Part shown: piece by piece, positions 22,448 through 28,358 of the stretch
Layout of the letters: every line of letters starts with the position of its first letter
How positions within the stretch are numbered: the stretch's first letter is position 1
Source of the DNA: Treponema sp.
GTDB lineage: Bacteria; Spirochaetota; Spirochaetia; Treponematales; Breznakiellaceae
Length of the DNA stretch: 42,838 bases
Assembly: GCA_031279205.1 (NCBI GenBank)
Contig: JAITIX010000136.1
Location: 1 to 42,838, forward strand
Direction of reading: 5' to 3'
Position numbers and translations under genes: made by a program
The notes under the pieces: generated by a model
Database searches by the model: none
Seen by the model: only the letters and a program-made list of their open reading frames with translations
What the model was told of the DNA's origin: nothing

Positions 22448-22861
22448 ATGACTACTGAATGTACGCTTGTGGTTCGTACCTATGAATGTGACCACTATGA
22501 CCATGTCAACAACGCTAACTACCTTAACTACCTTGAGTTTGCACGTTACGAATACCTCCGGAGCATTGGTTTTGATTATCCGGCCCTACTCAAGGCTGGC
22601 TATGGCTTGTATGTGGCCCGCGTTGAGATTGACTACAAGAAATCAGCGGTTACAGATGACGCGCTGTATATCCGTACATGGCCGCTCAAGAAGGGAGCGG
22701 TGAGCGGCCTGCTTGCCCAAGAGATACGACGCGGCGATGACATCATCGCCACAGCGAAGGTTACTTGGGCCTGCGTGGATTCCACCGGTAAGCCTAGCCG
22801 CCTGCCGCCGCAGTGGGATGTGCCTGGCCTGAACCCAGAGCATTCAGCGGCTGGTTCGTAA
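22448..22861 (+). CDS. Hotdog-fold acyl-CoA thioesterase (YbgC/4HBT-like)
   Basis: A 137-residue single hotdog domain. YECDHYDHVNNANYLNYLEFARYEYLR carries the family's D-x-x-x-H-V-N-N-x-x-Y-L active-site pattern with its catalytic Asp, and ARVEIDYKKSAVTDDALYIRTW follows as in 4-hydroxybenzoyl-CoA thioesterase relatives. It would hydrolyse an acyl-CoA thioester in the cytoplasm. AAGAGG lies before the ATG. Its last 18 bases overlap the end of the convergent ddl gene. Confidence 0.88.
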   Translation: MTTECTLVVRTYECDHYDHVNNANYLNYLEFARYEYLRSIGFDYPALLKAGYGLYVARVEIDYKKSAVTDDALYIRTWPLKKGAVSGLLAQEIRRGDDIIATAKVTWACVDSTGKPSRLPPQWDVPGLNPEHSAAGS

Positions 22862-23977
22862 GCGTTTCTCTTTTTCAAAACGTGAGAATGCAAGCCTTAT
22901 AAGCCGGTCAATGAGTTCGGTATAAGAAACGCCGCTCGCTTCCCAGAGCTTTGGGTACATGCTGATCCGCGTGAATCCAGGCATGGTATTGATCTCATTG
23001 ATTAACAGTATGCCGTCGCTTTTGAGAAATAAATCAACGCGGGCAATGCCCTCGGCGCAAAGCGTTTTAAACGTCTGAAGCGCGAGGCTTTGAACAGCGC
23101 GTGTTGTGTCTTCCGGCAAGTTGGCCGGAATATCCAGAGCCGCGCCGTTTTCATCGAGATACTTCGCATCGTAGGAATAAAACTCGTGGGAAGACCGCAC
23201 CTCACCAGGAAGTGAGGCGATTGGTTCCTCATTACCCAAAACAGAACATTCAAGCTCACGTCCTTTGATGTATTCCTCAATTATGAGCTTGGTGTCGTAC
23301 TGGAACGCTTCGGCGATAGCAGCCTTATACTCAGCCTCATTATGTACTTTGTTCACCCCCACCGACGAACCCATGTTTGCGGGCTTCACAAACAGCGGCA
23401 TTCCCAGTTCCCCAACAAGATCATCATAAGCCGGAACTGGCTCATACAGGGTAAGCGCCCGAAAGCCGCCTATGGGCAGCCCCGCGTCGCGTAACAAACG
23501 CTTCATCACATCCTTGTCCATGCCTACTGCTGACGCCAGTACACTCGACCCCACGAAAGGTATACCCGCGAGTTTGAGCAGGCCCTGCACCGTACCGTCT
23601 TCCCCAAACGGGCCATGGAGTATGGGAAACACCACGTCGATCCTTTCCCCGGTATTGGCGATAAGCCCACCGCTTTCTGGTGTCAGAGACACTTCAACGC
23701 CACACTCATTGAGCGCGATTCGGCACGGGTTACCAGCGTTCAGGATAAAGCGCGATGCTTGTGTCTCTGGCGCCAGCGCATGTGTCTCTGACACCCGCGT
23801 TGCCTCTGGCGCCGGCACCGGTGCGAGCCACCTGCCGTTTTTATTGATACCAATGAGCAGCGGCTCATACTTCGTCTTGTCGATAGCGTCAAACACGTTT
23901 TTCGCCGACTGCAAGGATACCTCATGTTCTGCTGACTTGCCGCCAAACAGTATACCAACCGTGATTTTCTTACTCAT
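22844..23977 (-). CDS. ddl: D-alanine--D-alanine ligase
   Basis: ATP-grasp enzyme making the D-Ala-D-Ala of peptidoglycan. VGILFGGKSAEHEVSLQSA starts the N-domain; HGPFGEDGTVQGLLKLAGIPFVGSSVLASAVGMDK, PLFVKPANMGSSVGV, KLIIEEYIKGRELECSVLGN, ARVDLF and LLINEINTMPGFTRISMYPKLWEASGVSY are all intact. Length is 377. An unusual Pro/Thr/Glu-rich stretch at residues 53-73 (PVPAPEATRVSETHALAPET) is encoded by three near-repeats of a CCAGAGACA motif related to the dispersed palindrome. GGAGG lies nine bases before the ATG. It is the last gene of the minus cluster that starts at the riboswitch. Confidence 0.96.
   Translation of the reverse strand: MSKKITVGILFGGKSAEHEVSLQSAKNVFDAIDKTKYEPLLIGINKNGRWLAPVPAPEATRVSETHALAPETQASRFILNAGNPCRIALNECGVEVSLTPESGGLIANTGERIDVVFPILHGPFGEDGTVQGLLKLAGIPFVGSSVLASAVGMDKDVMKRLLRDAGLPIGGFRALTLYEPVPAYDDLVGELGMPLFVKPANMGSSVGVNKVHNEAEYKAAIAEAFQYDTKLIIEEYIKGRELECSVLGNEEPIASLPGEVRSSHEFYSYDAKYLDENGAALDIPANLPEDTTRAVQSLALQTFKTLCAEGIARVDLFLKSDGILLINEINTMPGFTRISMYPKLWEASGVSYTELIDRLIRLAFSRFEKEKRLRTSR
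23679..23813. repeat. Palindrome copies inside ddl
   Basis: GGTGTCAGAGACAC (23679) encodes VSLTP. TGTGTCTCTGGCGCC (23760), TGTGTCTCTGACACC (23781) and TGCCTCTGGCGCC (23801) lie 18-21 bp apart and encode APET, VSET and APEA. Confidence 0.6.
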
Positions 23978-24007: not shown

Positions 24008-24739
24008 TTATTGAAGCCCCGCATAATATCGGCATAATCCCCGCGCTATCGTCTTCTCCGCGTAGTTTACCGTCTCCGCCACCTCGCCATAATTCTCCGC
24101 AGGAGTGCAAGTTAGACCCTGCAGGAATGGCGCGAAATAGTCAGGAAGCGGCGCGCTGATGTCCAGCGCAAGGTCGCCGTCGTTCACTATGAGACGGGAG
24201 GCGTGGAGTAGAAGCCACTTGAGACCCGTCTTCCGCAGCGTTTTGTTCAAGGCAAAGTCCCCGTACTTGTCGTCGCCAAGAATGGGGTTACCGGTTTGTG
24301 CGAGGTGTCGCCGAATCTGATGCATACGGCCCGTGCCGAGTTCCAGTTCTAGCAAGGAAAAGTCCTGATTCCCGGCCAACTGTTTGTACCTCGTTTCAGC
24401 CTGTTTCACCACGCCACGCACCTCAAGCTCAAGCGTGATACTGCCACTTCCTGGGCGCGGACTGCCCGCACAAACCGCGAGATACTGTTTGCTGACACTG
24501 CGCTTTCCGGCAAGCAACGCGGAAAAGTGGGCTGCGGATGCGCGGGTCTTTGCCACGAGGATAAGGCCGGAGGTGTCCTTGTCCAGCCGGTGTACCAGCA
24601 ATGGACGAGGCGCCCGCAGTTCAGCCAGAATCGTGTCCAGTGAGGAAGCCACCCGCTCGCCGCCCTGCGTGGCAAGGCCTGCTGGTTTGTTGATTACAAG
24701 GCAGTCTTTGTTTTCAAACAGTATCTCAAGGTTTCGCAT
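24008..24739 (-). CDS. RluA-family pseudouridine synthase without S4 domain
   Basis: Isomerises uridine to pseudouridine in rRNA or tRNA. HRLDKDTSGLILVAKT contains the catalytic Asp, preceded by VINKPAGLATQGG. YLAVCAG and LELELGTGRMHQIRRHLAQTGNPILGDDKYG complete the RluA pattern. The N-terminal S4 RNA-binding domain seen in RluC and RluD is missing, so the 243-residue protein resembles the shorter RluA/TruC type; the target site is unknown. It lies seven bases after the JetD-like gene and 30 before ddl. Confidence 0.92.
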   Translation of the reverse strand: MRNLEILFENKDCLVINKPAGLATQGGERVASSLDTILAELRAPRPLLVHRLDKDTSGLILVAKTRASAAHFSALLAGKRSVSKQYLAVCAGSPRPGSGSITLELEVRGVVKQAETRYKQLAGNQDFSLLELELGTGRMHQIRRHLAQTGNPILGDDKYGDFALNKTLRKTGLKWLLLHASRLIVNDGDLALDISAPLPDYFAPFLQGLTCTPAENYGEVAETVNYAEKTIARGLCRYYAGLQ

Positions 24740-24746
24740 GGCGTTT

Positions 24747-26021
24747 TTATGGTTTCAGCTTTGAGAAAAGCTTATTAAAGATGCTCAAGTAGCTGAACGT
24801 CTGATACGCTTGTTTTTGGGGAGAACTGGATTCCGGCAAGAGTCTGGCGTAATCAATGATTTCCTGTTCGATTCCCATGCCAGTTTCCTCTATCCGCGCA
24901 ATAAGCTCCGTGATGCCTGACAGAGAACGGGTTGTTTCGTTGATACGGTGCGCGTAGTGCAGCATGTTTTTGTGCAGCTTCCTTCCATACTGAGCGTATT
25001 CATCAAAGGTTGCGCTATCCATGCGGAAGGGTGTTACTGTCTGCCCTGCGTAATGGCTCAATTCCTGAAGGATCAGGATGCCGTCAATGTCCAGGTCGCC
25101 GGCGTGATAAAGCGCGAAGCCTGAACTAGCGAGTATTGCCACCAGCGCCTGTACCGCCGCGTTGGGATAGCCGCCGGTATAGAACAGGCAGTCAAAGCCT
25201 GAGAGCCGTTCACTCAGGGCATAAAAGGTCTCTTTGTTTTCGATACTGAGCGCTGTTGGGGTTCTTGTCTTCAGCGGACGCGCCGCGTTTATCTTCTGAA
25301 TCGTGGAAAGCGGAAGGCCCAAAATACTGCCGCTTTCATTTACCATTTCATATCCCGCAACACGAAACGCTACGCGCCCTGCGATCATGGTATCAGGATA
25401 GGAGCGATTGAGCGACGAAAAATCAGGAATCGCCACTCCTTGAGCCTCAGCCTTGTTTAGCATCTTATGGAACAGGGTGAGCAGAGCTTCTAAGCGCTTG
25501 GAATCCGCATACAGGGCAACCGAAAGTGCGCGCGGAGTCATGCCCTGATCTGTATGTTGTATGGTATACCGAGTAAGACTTATGAAGTCTTCCACAGCGC
25601 GCTCGTCAATTCCCCGCGCCATGTCAGCCATGGTTAGGTTTTCCGCAAGGAAGGTAAAAAACGGCAGGGCGCAACGCATGGCCACCTCGCGTATCGGGGC
25701 TATGCGGGTCGAGGGAGGAACTAAGCCCACTCCGGCAAAGAGCGCATCACCCACAGCGCACACAATGCTAGAAAGCTCCGCCTGTTCCTCGCGTCTGGTC
25801 CACACCAAAGAAACCATGCCTGACTTTTCAAGCCGCGCCGCCGCTTTAATGAACAGGTTTCGTTCATTAGCGGACGCACTCTCAAAATCAGGAAAAAGCT
25901 TATTTGCTTTAAGCCTCAGCATCTTGCTGCCTCCCGCCGCAACAGATGCAGGATACTTTGCCAGAAAAGCGTCAACAATACGCCGTTCCCATGAACTCAT
26001 TTTTGAAATATGTAGTTTCAC
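24747..26021 (-). CDS. Orphan JetD-like (DUF2220) TOPRIM-type nuclease protein
   Basis: A 424-residue protein whose last third matches the C-terminal domain of Wadjet JetD. ENKETF (about 261-266) holds the TOPRIM glutamate, LFYTGGYPNAAVQAL follows, then YHAGDLDIDGILILQEL with the D-x-D at about 309-311, and FRMDSATFDEY. The first 240 residues would correspond to the arm and winged-helix part but are divergent. In Wadjet, JetD is the DNA-cleaving subunit working with the JetABC SMC-like complex; no jetA, B or C is present here. It starts at GTG 26021 with AAGGAG ten bases upstream, 14 bases after exbD. Membership in the JetD/topoVI-A-like fold is likely; a role in defence or DNA maintenance is inference. 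Confidence 0.72.
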   Translation of the reverse strand: MKLHISKMSSWERRIVDAFLAKYPASVAAGGSKMLRLKANKLFPDFESASANERNLFIKAAARLEKSGMVSLVWTRREEQAELSSIVCAVGDALFAGVGLVPPSTRIAPIREVAMRCALPFFTFLAENLTMADMARGIDERAVEDFISLTRYTIQHTDQGMTPRALSVALYADSKRLEALLTLFHKMLNKAEAQGVAIPDFSSLNRSYPDTMIAGRVAFRVAGYEMVNESGSILGLPLSTIQKINAARPLKTRTPTALSIENKETFYALSERLSGFDCLFYTGGYPNAAVQALVAILASSGFALYHAGDLDIDGILILQELSHYAGQTVTPFRMDSATFDEYAQYGRKLHKNMLHYAHRINETTRSLSGITELIARIEETGMGIEQEIIDYARLLPESSSPQKQAYQTFSYLSIFNKLFSKLKP

Positions 26022-26035
26022 TTACACTATACTCC

Positions 26036-26431
26036 TTAGTTTTTTACTACAAAACTTACTACACGGTATTGCAACATTTGTAAAAGTTCCAGCACACGGT
26101 TTACATACTCAAACGGTGTATCCCGATCCGCAATGATGTGGATGCGCGTATCTGGCGCTGTCTGGTAGGTGTCAATAATACCATTTTGGATGGCGACAAG
26201 CTCACTCGGAAGACCGTCAATGTAGAGCGCGCCTTCACGGTCAACCCAGATTTCCATGTTTTTCTCCGCACTCGTCTTTTTCGCAGTCTCAGCCTCAGGA
26301 TACTCGATCTTCACTTCCCGGCGGTAGTTAATCAACGAAACCAGCATGATGAAGATGAGGAGTAAAAAGGCCACATCAGACATGGAGTTAAGGGGAATGA
26401 TGAAGCGGTTTCGCTTCCGCGCAAGGTTCAC
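26036..26431 (-). CDS. exbD: ExbD/TolR-type biopolymer transport protein (second copy)
   Basis: A single-pass inner-membrane protein. NLARKRNRFIIPLNSMSDVAFLLLIFIMLVSLI is the short cytoplasmic tail and membrane helix with the essential Asp (MSDVAFLLLIF). The periplasmic part ends DTPFEYVNRVLELLQMLQYRVVSFVV. The start is GTG at 26431, overlapping the upstream exbD stop (GTGA) with GAGAGG seven bases ahead; the longer ORF-track frame is rejected. It forms the proton channel with ExbB. Confidence 0.92.
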   Translation of the reverse strand: MNLARKRNRFIIPLNSMSDVAFLLLIFIMLVSLINYRREVKIEYPEAETAKKTSAEKNMEIWVDREGALYIDGLPSELVAIQNGIIDTYQTAPDTRIHIIADRDTPFEYVNRVLELLQMLQYRVVSFVVKN

Positions 26432-26829
26432 GATTGCGCCTCTCGCATGGAAAACGAGAAAGACTCCACACGCAGTTTTTGGGCAAGTTCCACGAATGAA
26501 ACCACCTGCTGCCACGGGGCGACGGGTGCGATGCTCAGAACCACCGCAAGATTCGGGTGTATGCTGATGGCGGCGCGTATCTCAGCTTCGGCTGTGGCAA
26601 GACTGAGCGTCTCCCCCTCGTGCCAGAGTACGCCGCGCTCGTCCAGTTCAAGGCGCAGAAGCTCGTCTTTCAGGATGAGACGGGTCGAGTCCTTTGCCGG
26701 CAAGTTCATAATAAACCCGCGATTGACATTAAAGCCCGCGATCACGATGAAATAGATGATGAGCAAAAAGGCTATATCGCTTGAGGCGCTTGAATCCTCA
26801 AACGCGCTCCGGCGGCGGCGCAGCTTCAC
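26428..26829 (-). CDS. exbD: ExbD/TolR-type biopolymer transport protein (first copy)
   Basis: MKLRRRRSAFEDSSASSDIAFLLIIYFIVIAGFNV gives a basic tail and a membrane helix with the conserved Asp (SSDIAFLLIIYF). The 133-residue length is normal. It starts at GTG, overlapping the exbB stop by four bases (GTGA), and its own stop overlaps the next exbD. Tandem exbD genes behind one exbB occur in several TonB-type systems. Which receptor they serve is inferred from operon context. Confidence 0.92.
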   Translation of the reverse strand: MKLRRRRSAFEDSSASSDIAFLLIIYFIVIAGFNVNRGFIMNLPAKDSTRLILKDELLRLELDERGVLWHEGETLSLATAEAEIRAAISIHPNLAVVLSIAPVAPWQQVVSFVELAQKLRVESFSFSMREAQS

Positions 26830-27518
26830 GAGTATTCCCCCAGACTTATGAAGGGCGATTGAGCCATTCTTGAACGGCTGCTTTTGGCAAGCACAATCTC
26901 CATGATAAGGTCGGTGCAGGTCTTTTCCACATCAGCCGTGAACTTATCAACCACATGGCTGAGGAGCGAATGGGCGATCATAGCGATGATGGCAATGATG
27001 AGGCCAAACACAGTGGTGATAAGCGCCTCGTAGATACCGTTTGCCACAATCTGGGCGTTTACGTCAGTGGCTTCGGCAATGGACTTGAACGCCCCGATCA
27101 TGCCAGACACTGTACCCAGAAAGCCGGTGAGCGGGGAAAGGGAACCAAGGGCTGTTAAAAAGTTAAAGCCATCTTCCAGTGAGTTGATGCAACTTGCGGC
27201 TTCCGCCTCAGCCGCTCTCTCCATCTGATGCTCGGAAAGCTGGGACTTACTCACCAGCGCCAGCAGTATCCGCGCTCCAAGTCTGCGCTGGTCAAGGCTG
27301 TAGAGATAATCCCGCGCTCCTTCCATATCGTTTTTCCGAATATATGCCAACACAGCTTCTTTCAGGTCATCAAGATATAAATTGTGGTACAGCAAGAAGA
27401 CAAACCTTTCGAGGGCAATGCCTATCGTGGCCACGGAAAACAGGAGCAGAGGCCACATGAAGCCTCCGCCCATCCTGAAGAGTTCAAATAATGAAAAAGA
27501 GCTTGTTCCACTTCCCAT
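26826..27518 (-). CDS. exbB: ExbB/TolQ/MotA-family proton channel protein
   Basis: A 230-residue inner-membrane protein with three helices: FMWPLLLFSVATIGIALERFVFL, then LTALGSLSPLTGFLGTVSGMIGAF, and the third LITTVFGLIIAIIAMIAHSLLSHVV. The blocks LSPLTGFLGTVSGMI and ALITTVFGLIIAIIA are the MotA/TolQ/ExbB signature. GAGGAATT precedes the ATG. It sits seven bases after the lipoprotein gene and overlaps exbD. With the receptor upstream it most likely energises outer-membrane uptake rather than acting as TolQ. Confidence 0.94.
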   Translation of the reverse strand: MGSGTSSFSLFELFRMGGGFMWPLLLFSVATIGIALERFVFLLYHNLYLDDLKEAVLAYIRKNDMEGARDYLYSLDQRRLGARILLALVSKSQLSEHQMERAAEAEAASCINSLEDGFNFLTALGSLSPLTGFLGTVSGMIGAFKSIAEATDVNAQIVANGIYEALITTVFGLIIAIIAMIAHSLLSHVVDKFTADVEKTCTDLIMEIVLAKSSRSRMAQSPFISLGEYS

Positions 27519-27524
27519 AATTCC

Positions 27525-28358
27525 TCACTTTGTTCTGCTTAACAGATAATCTTTTGAAAATACTTCTGCTACATACGTTTCCTGGTAGACAAAATATATC
27601 CAGGTAACAGCTTCCTCCCAATCCCGCAGGAGCGCGCCTGAGTCGCGCAGAGTCCACAGGGGTTCTGGGAACATAGTCGCGGTGTAGGTGGCGTTCCACG
27701 CGACGTCCTCGGCGTGTATCCACACCGCGTTTTGCCGTGTCCATATAACCGGGCGCTCAGCGGCGGGCGTTAGTTCCGGCAGGAGCAGCCGCTTCCAGTA
27801 TGCCTCAAACGCGGACTGGGTTCTGAACGCCGGCGCGGTTATGCCGCGCATCCACGCAACCAGCGCCCTTATACGTTCAGCGCGGTTACGCAGATTGCTC
27901 AGCGCGGTTACGCCACTAAGCCGCACCCCGTTATGGAGTATCCCGCCGGCGGAAATTTCCACAGGGATAAGCGTGTCGATTCGCAGCCACGCCTCAGACT
28001 CCTTTATAGTTACCACGCCGGAACCCACGAGATCAAGCGTAAACTCATTCCAGCCATTGAGGTTACTCGATAAAAACTGAAACGCGACAAGCTGCAACTG
28101 ACCGCTTTCATCAGGGATAGCACGCAGCGTGATAAACGGGAAGGCGTCAAGGTTCATCAGCAGGTACTCAGTTCCGTCCCGCGTCATGGTCAGCCGCATC
28201 TCAATACCCGCGCCCTGATACACCGCCAGAGTCATTTCGGCAAACAGAGACCCGTCCACCACCCGCGCGCCTTGTTCAACCAGACTCACACACGCCATAC
28301 AGAGCAGAGCCAGCACTAAAGACGCAAGAGCCACAACGAAATTCTTCATCAGGGACAT
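27525..28358 (-). CDS. Uncharacterised lipoprotein in the btuB-exb cluster
   Basis: The N-terminus MKNFVVALASLVLALLCMACVSL has a lipobox (CMAC); the start is either 28358 or the ATG three codons later. The mature protein of about 255 residues has no motif I recognise. It contains beta-rich, Trp-containing stretches such as LNGWNEFTLDLVGSG and ends DWEEAVTWIYFVYQETYVAEVF. Its place between the receptor and exbB suggests a part in the same uptake system. No TonB gene is in the window, but nothing in this sequence (no Pro-rich spacer, no TonB C-terminal domain) shows that it replaces TonB. Confidence 0.8.
   Translation of the reverse strand: MSLMKNFVVALASLVLALLCMACVSLVEQGARVVDGSLFAEMTLAVYQGAGIEMRLTMTRDGTEYLLMNLDAFPFITLRAIPDESGQLQLVAFQFLSSNLNGWNEFTLDLVGSGVVTIKESEAWLRIDTLIPVEISAGGILHNGVRLSGVTALSNLRNRAERIRALVAWMRGITAPAFRTQSAFEAYWKRLLLPELTPAAERPVIWTRQNAVWIHAEDVAWNATYTATMFPEPLWTLRDSGALLRDWEEAVTWIYFVYQETYVAEVFSKDYLLSRTK

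What the first reader, a model, noticed from the sequence alone, without database searches (positions are those of the whole stretch)
24747..26021. Stand-alone JetD-like TOPRIM protein in a housekeeping cluster
ENKETF, GDLDIDG and the FRMDSATFDEY segment match the DNA-cleaving subunit JetD of the Wadjet plasmid-defence system, but no jetA, jetB or jetC is present. The gene is tied by 7-14 base gaps to exbD and a pseudouridine synthase gene. It may be a domesticated nuclease, for example in chromosome maintenance, or an accessory effector working with SMC proteins encoded elsewhere.
Basis: partly seen in the sequence, partly recalled or inferred. Interest (0 to 1): 0.65.

Follow-up and report, generated by a model that had tools for sequence, protein, structure and literature searches.

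The report
Orphan Wadjet nuclease JetD, kept alone
In a group of Treponema-like gut bacteria, the DNA-cutting part of the plasmid-defence machine Wadjet has been kept, apparently working, after the rest of the machine was lost; this has happened repeatedly in the family, and most of the stranded copies have lost the same acidic surface, which suggests they no longer dock on the old machine.

Summary
ORF 24747-26021 (-) is a full-length JetD: Pfam JetD_C, PADLOC JetD1 (1.6e-38), and a predicted fold matching solved MksG, JetD and Topo VI-A. Every metal-binding and proposed catalytic acid is present. It lies 14 bases after exbD and 7 before an rluA-type gene, and this order is the same in all four genus members that carry it. 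dN/dS (0.20-0.30) rules out a decaying relic.

JetA, JetB and JetC were not found in five genus genomes (incomplete MAGs); the only long SMC found is canonical Smc. The gene nests inside a tree of type I Wadjet JetD proteins, most of them next to jetC. Stand-alone JetD arose several times there.

New here: JetD proteins with jetABC keep an acidic face (D52, E55, E59, E62, E81). Most orphans, this one included, have lost it, while the active site never varies. Two 'unlinked' JetD whose genomes still hold jetABC elsewhere keep it. So this copy is probably a JetABC-independent nuclease, not a subunit waiting for distant SMC partners. JetD occupies the slot where relatives have tonB; an independent JetD sits there too.

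Its cellular role is inferred, not shown.

The parts
24747..26021 (-). orphan jetD gene (424 aa, GTG start): N-terminal CAP-like arm (about residues 1-225), TOPRIM nuclease domain (about 226-391), unconserved C-terminal tail (392-424)
   Evidence: dN/dS by segment
25824..25871 (-). helix 51-66 of JetD: acidic face (D52, E55, E59, E62) of JetD proteins with jetABC, here replaced by N52, N55, K59, A62; the neighbouring E81 (codon 25779-25781) is A
   Evidence: helix position from the model
25224..25241 (-). ENKETF motif, residues 261-266; E261 is the metal-binding glutamate equivalent of MksG E236 (equivalence by motif)
   Evidence: invariant in 65 aligned JetD proteins; MksG roles from PMC10123090
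25080..25100 (-). GDLDIDG motif, residues 308-314; D309 and D311 invariant (D309 corresponds by motif to MksG D279)
   Evidence: PMC10123090
24861..24869 (-). EQE motif, residues 385-387, the conserved glutamate pair proposed as alternative nucleophiles in JetD (MksG E349/E351)
   Evidence: invariant in 65 sequences; PMC10123090
26032..26037 (-). AAGGAG, Shine-Dalgarno-like, overlapping the exbD stop codon, 10 bases before the jetD GTG
   Evidence: sequence
26036..26515 (-). exbD (second copy), immediately upstream of jetD
   Evidence: PF02472 8.2e-19
26428..26829 (-). exbD (first copy)
   Evidence: PF02472 2.6e-13
26826..27518 (-). exbB
   Evidence: PF01618 3.2e-28
24008..24739 (-). RluA-type pseudouridine synthase gene, 7 bases downstream of jetD
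   Evidence: PF00849 3e-28
22844..23977 (-). D-Ala-D-Ala-ligase-like gene following the rluA-type gene; named from its sequence, not scanned against a family library
   Evidence: same order in L031-L033

Best explanation
This is a JetD that descends from a type I Wadjet (JetABCD) nuclease subunit and has become independent of JetABC. SHOWN by computation: (1) it is a full-length JetD with the MksG/JetD/Topo VI-A fold and every metal-binding and proposed catalytic acid intact; (2) the gene is under purifying selection in four species at one fixed position, exbB-exbD-exbD-jetD-rluA; (3) no jetABC was found in any available genus genome; (4) stand-alone JetD arose several times in this family, and most orphan lineages, this one included, lost an acidic face of the arm domain that JetD proteins with jetABC keep, while the active site stayed invariant. 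INFERRED: the acidic face is the surface by which JetD docks on, or is controlled by, JetABC, and its loss marks decoupling. The protein then acts as a free homodimeric, Mg2+/Mn2+-dependent TOPRIM endonuclease, produced at housekeeping level from the exb operon and held inactive by closure of its own arms until it meets a suitable DNA substrate. The likeliest role is in DNA maintenance (cutting abnormal or entangled DNA); residual clearance of foreign DNA is second. Rough weights given decoupling: maintenance 45%, residual defence 30%, other 25%.
For: Family and fold: mean pLDDT 88.8; 8b7f MksG 3.0e-12, 1d3y Topo VI-A 1.7e-7, 7til JetD 3.4e-7, 8urq Spo11 2.2e-6. Invariant E261, D309, D311, E385, E387 in 65 sequences. 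Fixed order in G001, G002, G003. dN/dS: jetD 0.20-0.30; TOPRIM segment 0.16, arm 0.14-0.39, tail 0.81. No JetA, JetB, JetC or DUF3584 in G000-G004, while the JetA, JetB and JetC profiles find them in relatives. Long SMC proteins in the genus: canonical Smc only, with smaller RecN- and RecF-sized matches. Trees: window plus genus a 100/100 clade inside type I Wadjet JetD; strongly supported branches force 11 changes of the stand-alone label, a count that includes two in-trans rows and rows from incomplete MAGs. Charge loss, orphans against JetD with jetABC: E55 12/17 v 5/48, E59 9/17 v 0/48, E62 9/17 v 2/48, E81 10/17 v 2/48, D52 8/17 v 3/48; E65 on the same helix 0/17, and all five catalytic acids 0/17. 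Phylogenetically independent pairs: the two traits go together in 5-7 of 8 and never oppositely, sign test p 0.016-0.063. In-trans controls L111 and L126, whose genomes hold jetABC on other contigs without a linked jetD, keep the acidic face. MksG alone nicks and linearises plasmid DNA (PMC10123090).
Against: All genus genomes are MAGs 55-82% complete, so jetABC could be missed; with one jetABC locus the chance of missing it in all four JetD-bearing genomes is about 0.19 x 0.32 x 0.45 x 0.19 = 0.5%, higher if such genes bin poorly. The acidic positions were picked after looking at the orphans, and the columns chosen are about twice as variable as others even in JetD with jetABC. Exceptions exist: L119 and L121 keep all five acids with no JetC or JetA found, and L116 and L145 keep three. 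Loss of the face could reflect relaxed constraint rather than a new function. JetD alone cuts DNA only at artificially high concentration (review PMC10586767). No direct evidence for any cellular role.
Confidence: 0.6

Rival explanations
1. It is still a Wadjet subunit acting in trans: jetABC lies elsewhere in the genome and was missed because the MAGs are incomplete.
For: Unlinked arrangements occur in this family: G201 has jetC and jetB on a contig with no jetD beside them, and its JetD (L126) is elsewhere; G200 has jetABC on one contig and its JetD (L111) on another, though there the contig ends just after jetC. Split jetAB / jetCD operons also occur.
Against: JetA, JetB and JetC profiles and DUF3584 find nothing in five genus genomes. 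The two in-trans JetD proteins keep the acidic face; this lineage has lost it.
Confidence: 0.12
2. It is an evolutionary relic of a lost Wadjet operon, decaying in a permissive spot behind exbD.
For: It sits on a long stem branch (0.71-0.78), and the acidic face and C-terminal tail are not held (segment dN/dS 0.39 and 0.81).
Against: No stops or frameshifts in four species, overall dN/dS 0.20-0.30, similar to the neighbouring 277-codon gene (0.18-0.28) and somewhat above exbB and rluA; TOPRIM segment 0.16; catalytic residues invariant.
Confidence: 0.06
3. It is a stand-alone defence nuclease: still anti-plasmid or anti-phage, with a trigger of its own instead of JetABC.
For: Ancestry is a defence system; orphans appear repeatedly and patchily, as defence genes do; MksG alone can degrade plasmid in vitro (PMC10123090).
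Against: Fixed position in a housekeeping operon in four species; no relatives recovered in viral contigs; no mobile-element genes recognised beside it in the window.
Confidence: 0.2
4. It has been tied functionally to the exbBDD operon, because JetD sits where relatives have tonB and two separate JetD lineages moved there.
For: exbB-exbD-exbD is followed by tonB in L181, L182 and L183 but by jetD in the four genus members and independently in L119; one clade of the two rejected, AU p 1.4e-8. tonB is on another contig in G000 and G003.
Against: No known link between a TOPRIM nuclease and ExbBD energy transfer; the spot may simply be permissive, or JetD may have stayed at an ancestral location while jetC was lost. 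Noticed after the fact.
Confidence: 0.05

Closest known systems
JetD of type I Wadjet (JetABCD; EptD, MksG)
   Same: Full-length homology, same arm plus TOPRIM layout and fold, all metal-binding and proposed catalytic acids; nested in the JetD tree.
   Different: No jetABC in the genome found; acidic face D52/E55/E59/E62/E81 lost; gene in a housekeeping operon.
MksG of Corynebacterium glutamicum (PDB 8b7f)
   Same: Best solved-structure match; E236, D279, E349 and E351 correspond to E261, D309, E385 and E387 by motif.
   Different: MksG works with MksBEF through the kleisin MksF (PMC10123090); its Tyr258 nucleophile candidate is reported absent from JetD.
Topoisomerase VI A subunit / Spo11
   Same: TOPRIM fold match (1d3y, 8urq).
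   Different: Per the literature, JetD lacks the catalytic CAP-domain tyrosine; no Topo VI B-type partner gene was recognised beside it.

Membership tests
JetD / MksG protein family | JetD C-terminal TOPRIM domain above curated cut-off | tested here: met
   PF09983 53.2 bits against a cut-off of 22; PADLOC JetD1 130.8 bits
JetD / MksG protein family | N-terminal arm (DUF3322 / CAP) present | tested here: met
   DUF3322 sub-threshold, 17.1 bits against 22, but PADLOC JetD1 covers residues 10-390, relatives align end to end, and the fold match spans both domains
JetD / MksG protein family | Metal-binding and proposed catalytic acids | tested here: met
   E261, D309, D311, E385, E387 invariant in 65 sequences
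JetD / MksG protein family | Metal-dependent DNA cleavage | not testable with these tools
   needs purified protein
Wadjet (JetABCD) defence system | jetA, jetB, jetC and jetD clustered in one operon | tested here: not met
   neighbours are exbBDD and an rluA-type gene
Wadjet (JetABCD) defence system | JetA, JetB and JetC encoded anywhere in the genome | tested here: not met
   not found in G000-G004; genomes 55-82% complete, so not absolute
Wadjet (JetABCD) defence system | Restricts small circular plasmids | not testable with these tools
   experiment needed
Topoisomerase VI / Spo11 | CAP-domain catalytic tyrosine and a Topo VI B partner | not tested
   fold similarity only; the literature states JetD lacks the tyrosine

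The most novel reading that the evidence does not exclude
JetD has repeatedly escaped from Wadjet to found stand-alone, JetABC-independent TOPRIM nucleases with a chromosomal role; escape is marked by loss of one acidic docking face with full retention of the active site, which gives a sequence test separating true orphans from in-trans subunits.
Probability: 0.4. Interest if true: 0.75.

Novelty: new variant of a known kind. Interest (0 to 1): 0.52.

Why it matters
Wadjet's nuclease is thought to be harmless until its SMC motor activates it. Species that keep the nuclease without the motor would show that it can be tolerated and useful on its own, and would give a natural experiment on how JetABC controls it. 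The acidic face lost in most orphan lineages is a concrete, testable prediction of the JetABC docking or control surface. It also warns annotators that a JetD hit alone is not a Wadjet system.

Tried and rejected
Decaying relic: rejected by dN/dS and the intact active site. Loss in genus member G004 (no JetD): cannot be judged, since exbB is also absent and its best ddl match is only 44% identical, as if the whole region were missing from the assembly. One common move behind exbD for this genus and L119: rejected (AU p 1.4e-8). A large protein beside the orphan JetD in L161, suspected as a new SMC-like partner because it resembled a protein between jetAB and jetCD in G028, is a chemotaxis receptor and a chance neighbour. 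A sequence profile against the PDB found nothing at 0.01, although the fold search did. A viral-contig scan found no relatives. DUF3584 (PF12128) also misses the jetC of the positive control G032, so its negative result carries little weight alone; the family-built JetC profile is the real test. No paper on orphan JetD was found in the held library; PADLOC's authors note that searching for orphan defence genes was unproductive.

Full report
WHAT IS THERE. The ORF at 24747-26021 (minus strand, 424 codons) is real and starts at a GTG preceded by AAGGAG at a 10-base spacing. It matches Pfam JetD_C (2.9e-14), DUF2399 (1.8e-12) and PADLOC JetD1 (1.6e-38, residues 10-390). AlphaFold2 on 65 family sequences gives mean pLDDT 88.8. 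Foldseek puts MksG of C. glutamicum (8b7f, 3.0e-12), Topo VI-A (1d3y) and JetD of P. aeruginosa (7til) at the top, with Spo11 (8urq) also matching. Global TM-scores are only 0.3-0.4, as expected for two domains joined by a hinge. E261, D309, D311, E385 and E387 are invariant in all 65 proteins. By motif these are the metal ligands and proposed nucleophiles of MksG/JetD (E236, D279, E349, E351; PMC10123090).

WHERE IT SITS. The order is exbB-exbD-exbD-jetD-rluA-ddl (ddl named from sequence). It is the same in the three other genus genomes that carry jetD: G001, G002 and G003, which appear in GenBank as termite-gut-style 'Treponema sp.' MAGs (host inferred from isolate naming, not checked). The fifth genus genome, G004, lacks jetD, but also lacks exbB and a close ddl, so its region is probably missing from the assembly. 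In other genera exbB-exbD-exbD is followed by tonB (L181, L182, L183); here jetD occupies that slot, and tonB is elsewhere in G000 and G003.

IS THE REST OF WADJET PRESENT? In most relatives jetD directly follows jetC, within or near a type I jetABCD operon. Profiles built from those JetA, JetB and JetC proteins find nothing in G000-G004, although they find them readily in relatives. SMC_N finds in G000 and G003 a canonical-size Smc of about 990 aa, and across the genus RecN- and RecF-sized proteins, but no further long SMC. The MAGs are 55-82% complete; if one jetABC locus were general in the genus, missing it in all four JetD-bearing genomes has a chance of about 0.5%.

IS IT FUNCTIONAL? Pairwise dN/dS (NG86) among four species is 0.20-0.30, against 0.10-0.20 for rluA, 0.08-0.20 for exbB and 0.18-0.28 for the neighbouring 277-codon gene. 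By segment: TOPRIM 0.16, N-terminal 50 residues 0.14, residues 51-90 0.39, C-terminal tail 0.81. This is a kept protein, most tightly in its catalytic domain.

HOW IT AROSE. Trees of 51 and 72 JetD proteins place this genus as a 100/100 clade nested among JetD proteins next to jetC. Strongly supported branches force 6 and 11 changes of the stand-alone label respectively. That label includes two in-trans rows and rows from incomplete MAGs, so it overcounts true orphaning; the coding that treats the in-trans rows as having jetABC still needs 9 changes. A second stable orphan clade of six species (L125, L127, L139, L149, L165, L171) shares a conserved, unclassified neighbour of about 260 aa. Two intermediate states exist. 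G201 and G200 hold jetABC on contigs with no jetD beside them, and their JetD lie elsewhere; in G200 the contig ends right after jetC, so there the separation is not proven.

THE ACIDIC FACE. Among 48 JetD proteins whose genomes hold jetABC, helix 51-66 carries D52, E55, E59 and E62, with E81 on the next strand pair. On a 3.6-residue helix these four helix positions fall within about 80 degrees of arc. In 17 orphan sequences the charge is lost at E55 in 12 (5/48 with jetABC), E59 in 9 (0/48), E62 in 9 (2/48), E81 in 10 (2/48) and D52 in 8 (3/48). E65 on the same helix is never lost in orphans, nor are the catalytic acids. In a scan of 139 conserved columns, six were substituted in four of five chosen orphan lineages, and five of the six are exactly these acids. 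Over phylogenetically independent pairs the loss goes with orphan status in 5-7 of 8 and never against it (p 0.016-0.063). The in-trans JetD L111 and L126 keep the face. Limits: the positions were chosen after the fact; a hold-out test is significant, but the selected columns are also about twice as variable in JetD with jetABC; L119 and L121 keep the face, and L116 and L145 keep most of it. I read the face as a docking or control surface for JetABC. The literature shows the kleisin MksF binding MksG, but no interface residues could be checked here, and a role in self-inhibition is equally possible.

A SECOND JETD BEHIND EXBD. L119, from a different genus-level lineage, also has exbB-exbD-exbD-jetD. 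One clade with our genus is rejected (AU p 1.4e-8). Either the site was entered twice, or JetD stayed at an old location in both while jetC was lost. L119 keeps the acidic face, and its genome is only 1.5 Mb of assembly, so it may still have partners. I treat this as a lead.

MECHANISM. MksG alone nicks and linearises plasmid DNA with Mn2+; JetD is described as autoinhibited by arm closure and only weakly active alone. The best reading is a free dimeric metal-dependent endonuclease, kept at housekeeping level and controlled by its own arms or an unknown partner. Maintenance of the chromosome is the likelier role because of the fixed operon position; residual defence is the main alternative. 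Neither is shown.

VERDICT. Observation confirmed; interpretation partly supported, with 'domesticated' favoured over 'accessory to distant SMC'. New variant of a known kind.

Noticed in passing
L119:4451-7309: An independent JetD lineage also directly follows exbB-exbD-exbD (about 30-base gap); its acidic face is intact and no JetA or JetC was found in its incomplete genome.
   Followed up: partly
L179 (G201:C124) with L126; L178 (G200:C362) with L111: jetABC with no jetD beside it while jetD lies on another contig: apparently trans-acting, unlinked Wadjet. In L178 the contig ends right after jetC.
   Followed up: partly
L034, L065, L074, L075: Split or reordered Wadjet operons: jetAB separated from jetCD by several genes, or jetCD placed before jetAB.
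   Followed up: no
L125, L127, L139, L149, L165, L171: Second stable orphan jetD clade (six species) with a conserved neighbour of about 260 aa on the opposite strand; the copies tested (L037, L039, L165) have no Pfam match. L165 and L171 also have a relative of the window's 277-aa gene nearby.
   Followed up: partly
window 26036-27518; L181, L182, L183: In relatives tonB directly follows exbBDD; in this genus that slot holds jetD and tonB is on another contig.
   Followed up: partly
L153 and L067 (genome G011/G213): One genome holds both a complete type I Wadjet with its own JetD and a diverged orphan JetD lacking most of the acidic face.
   Followed up: partly
window 27525-28358: 277-aa putative lipoprotein upstream of exbB, no Pfam match; relatives next to exbB in L182 and L183.
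   Followed up: no
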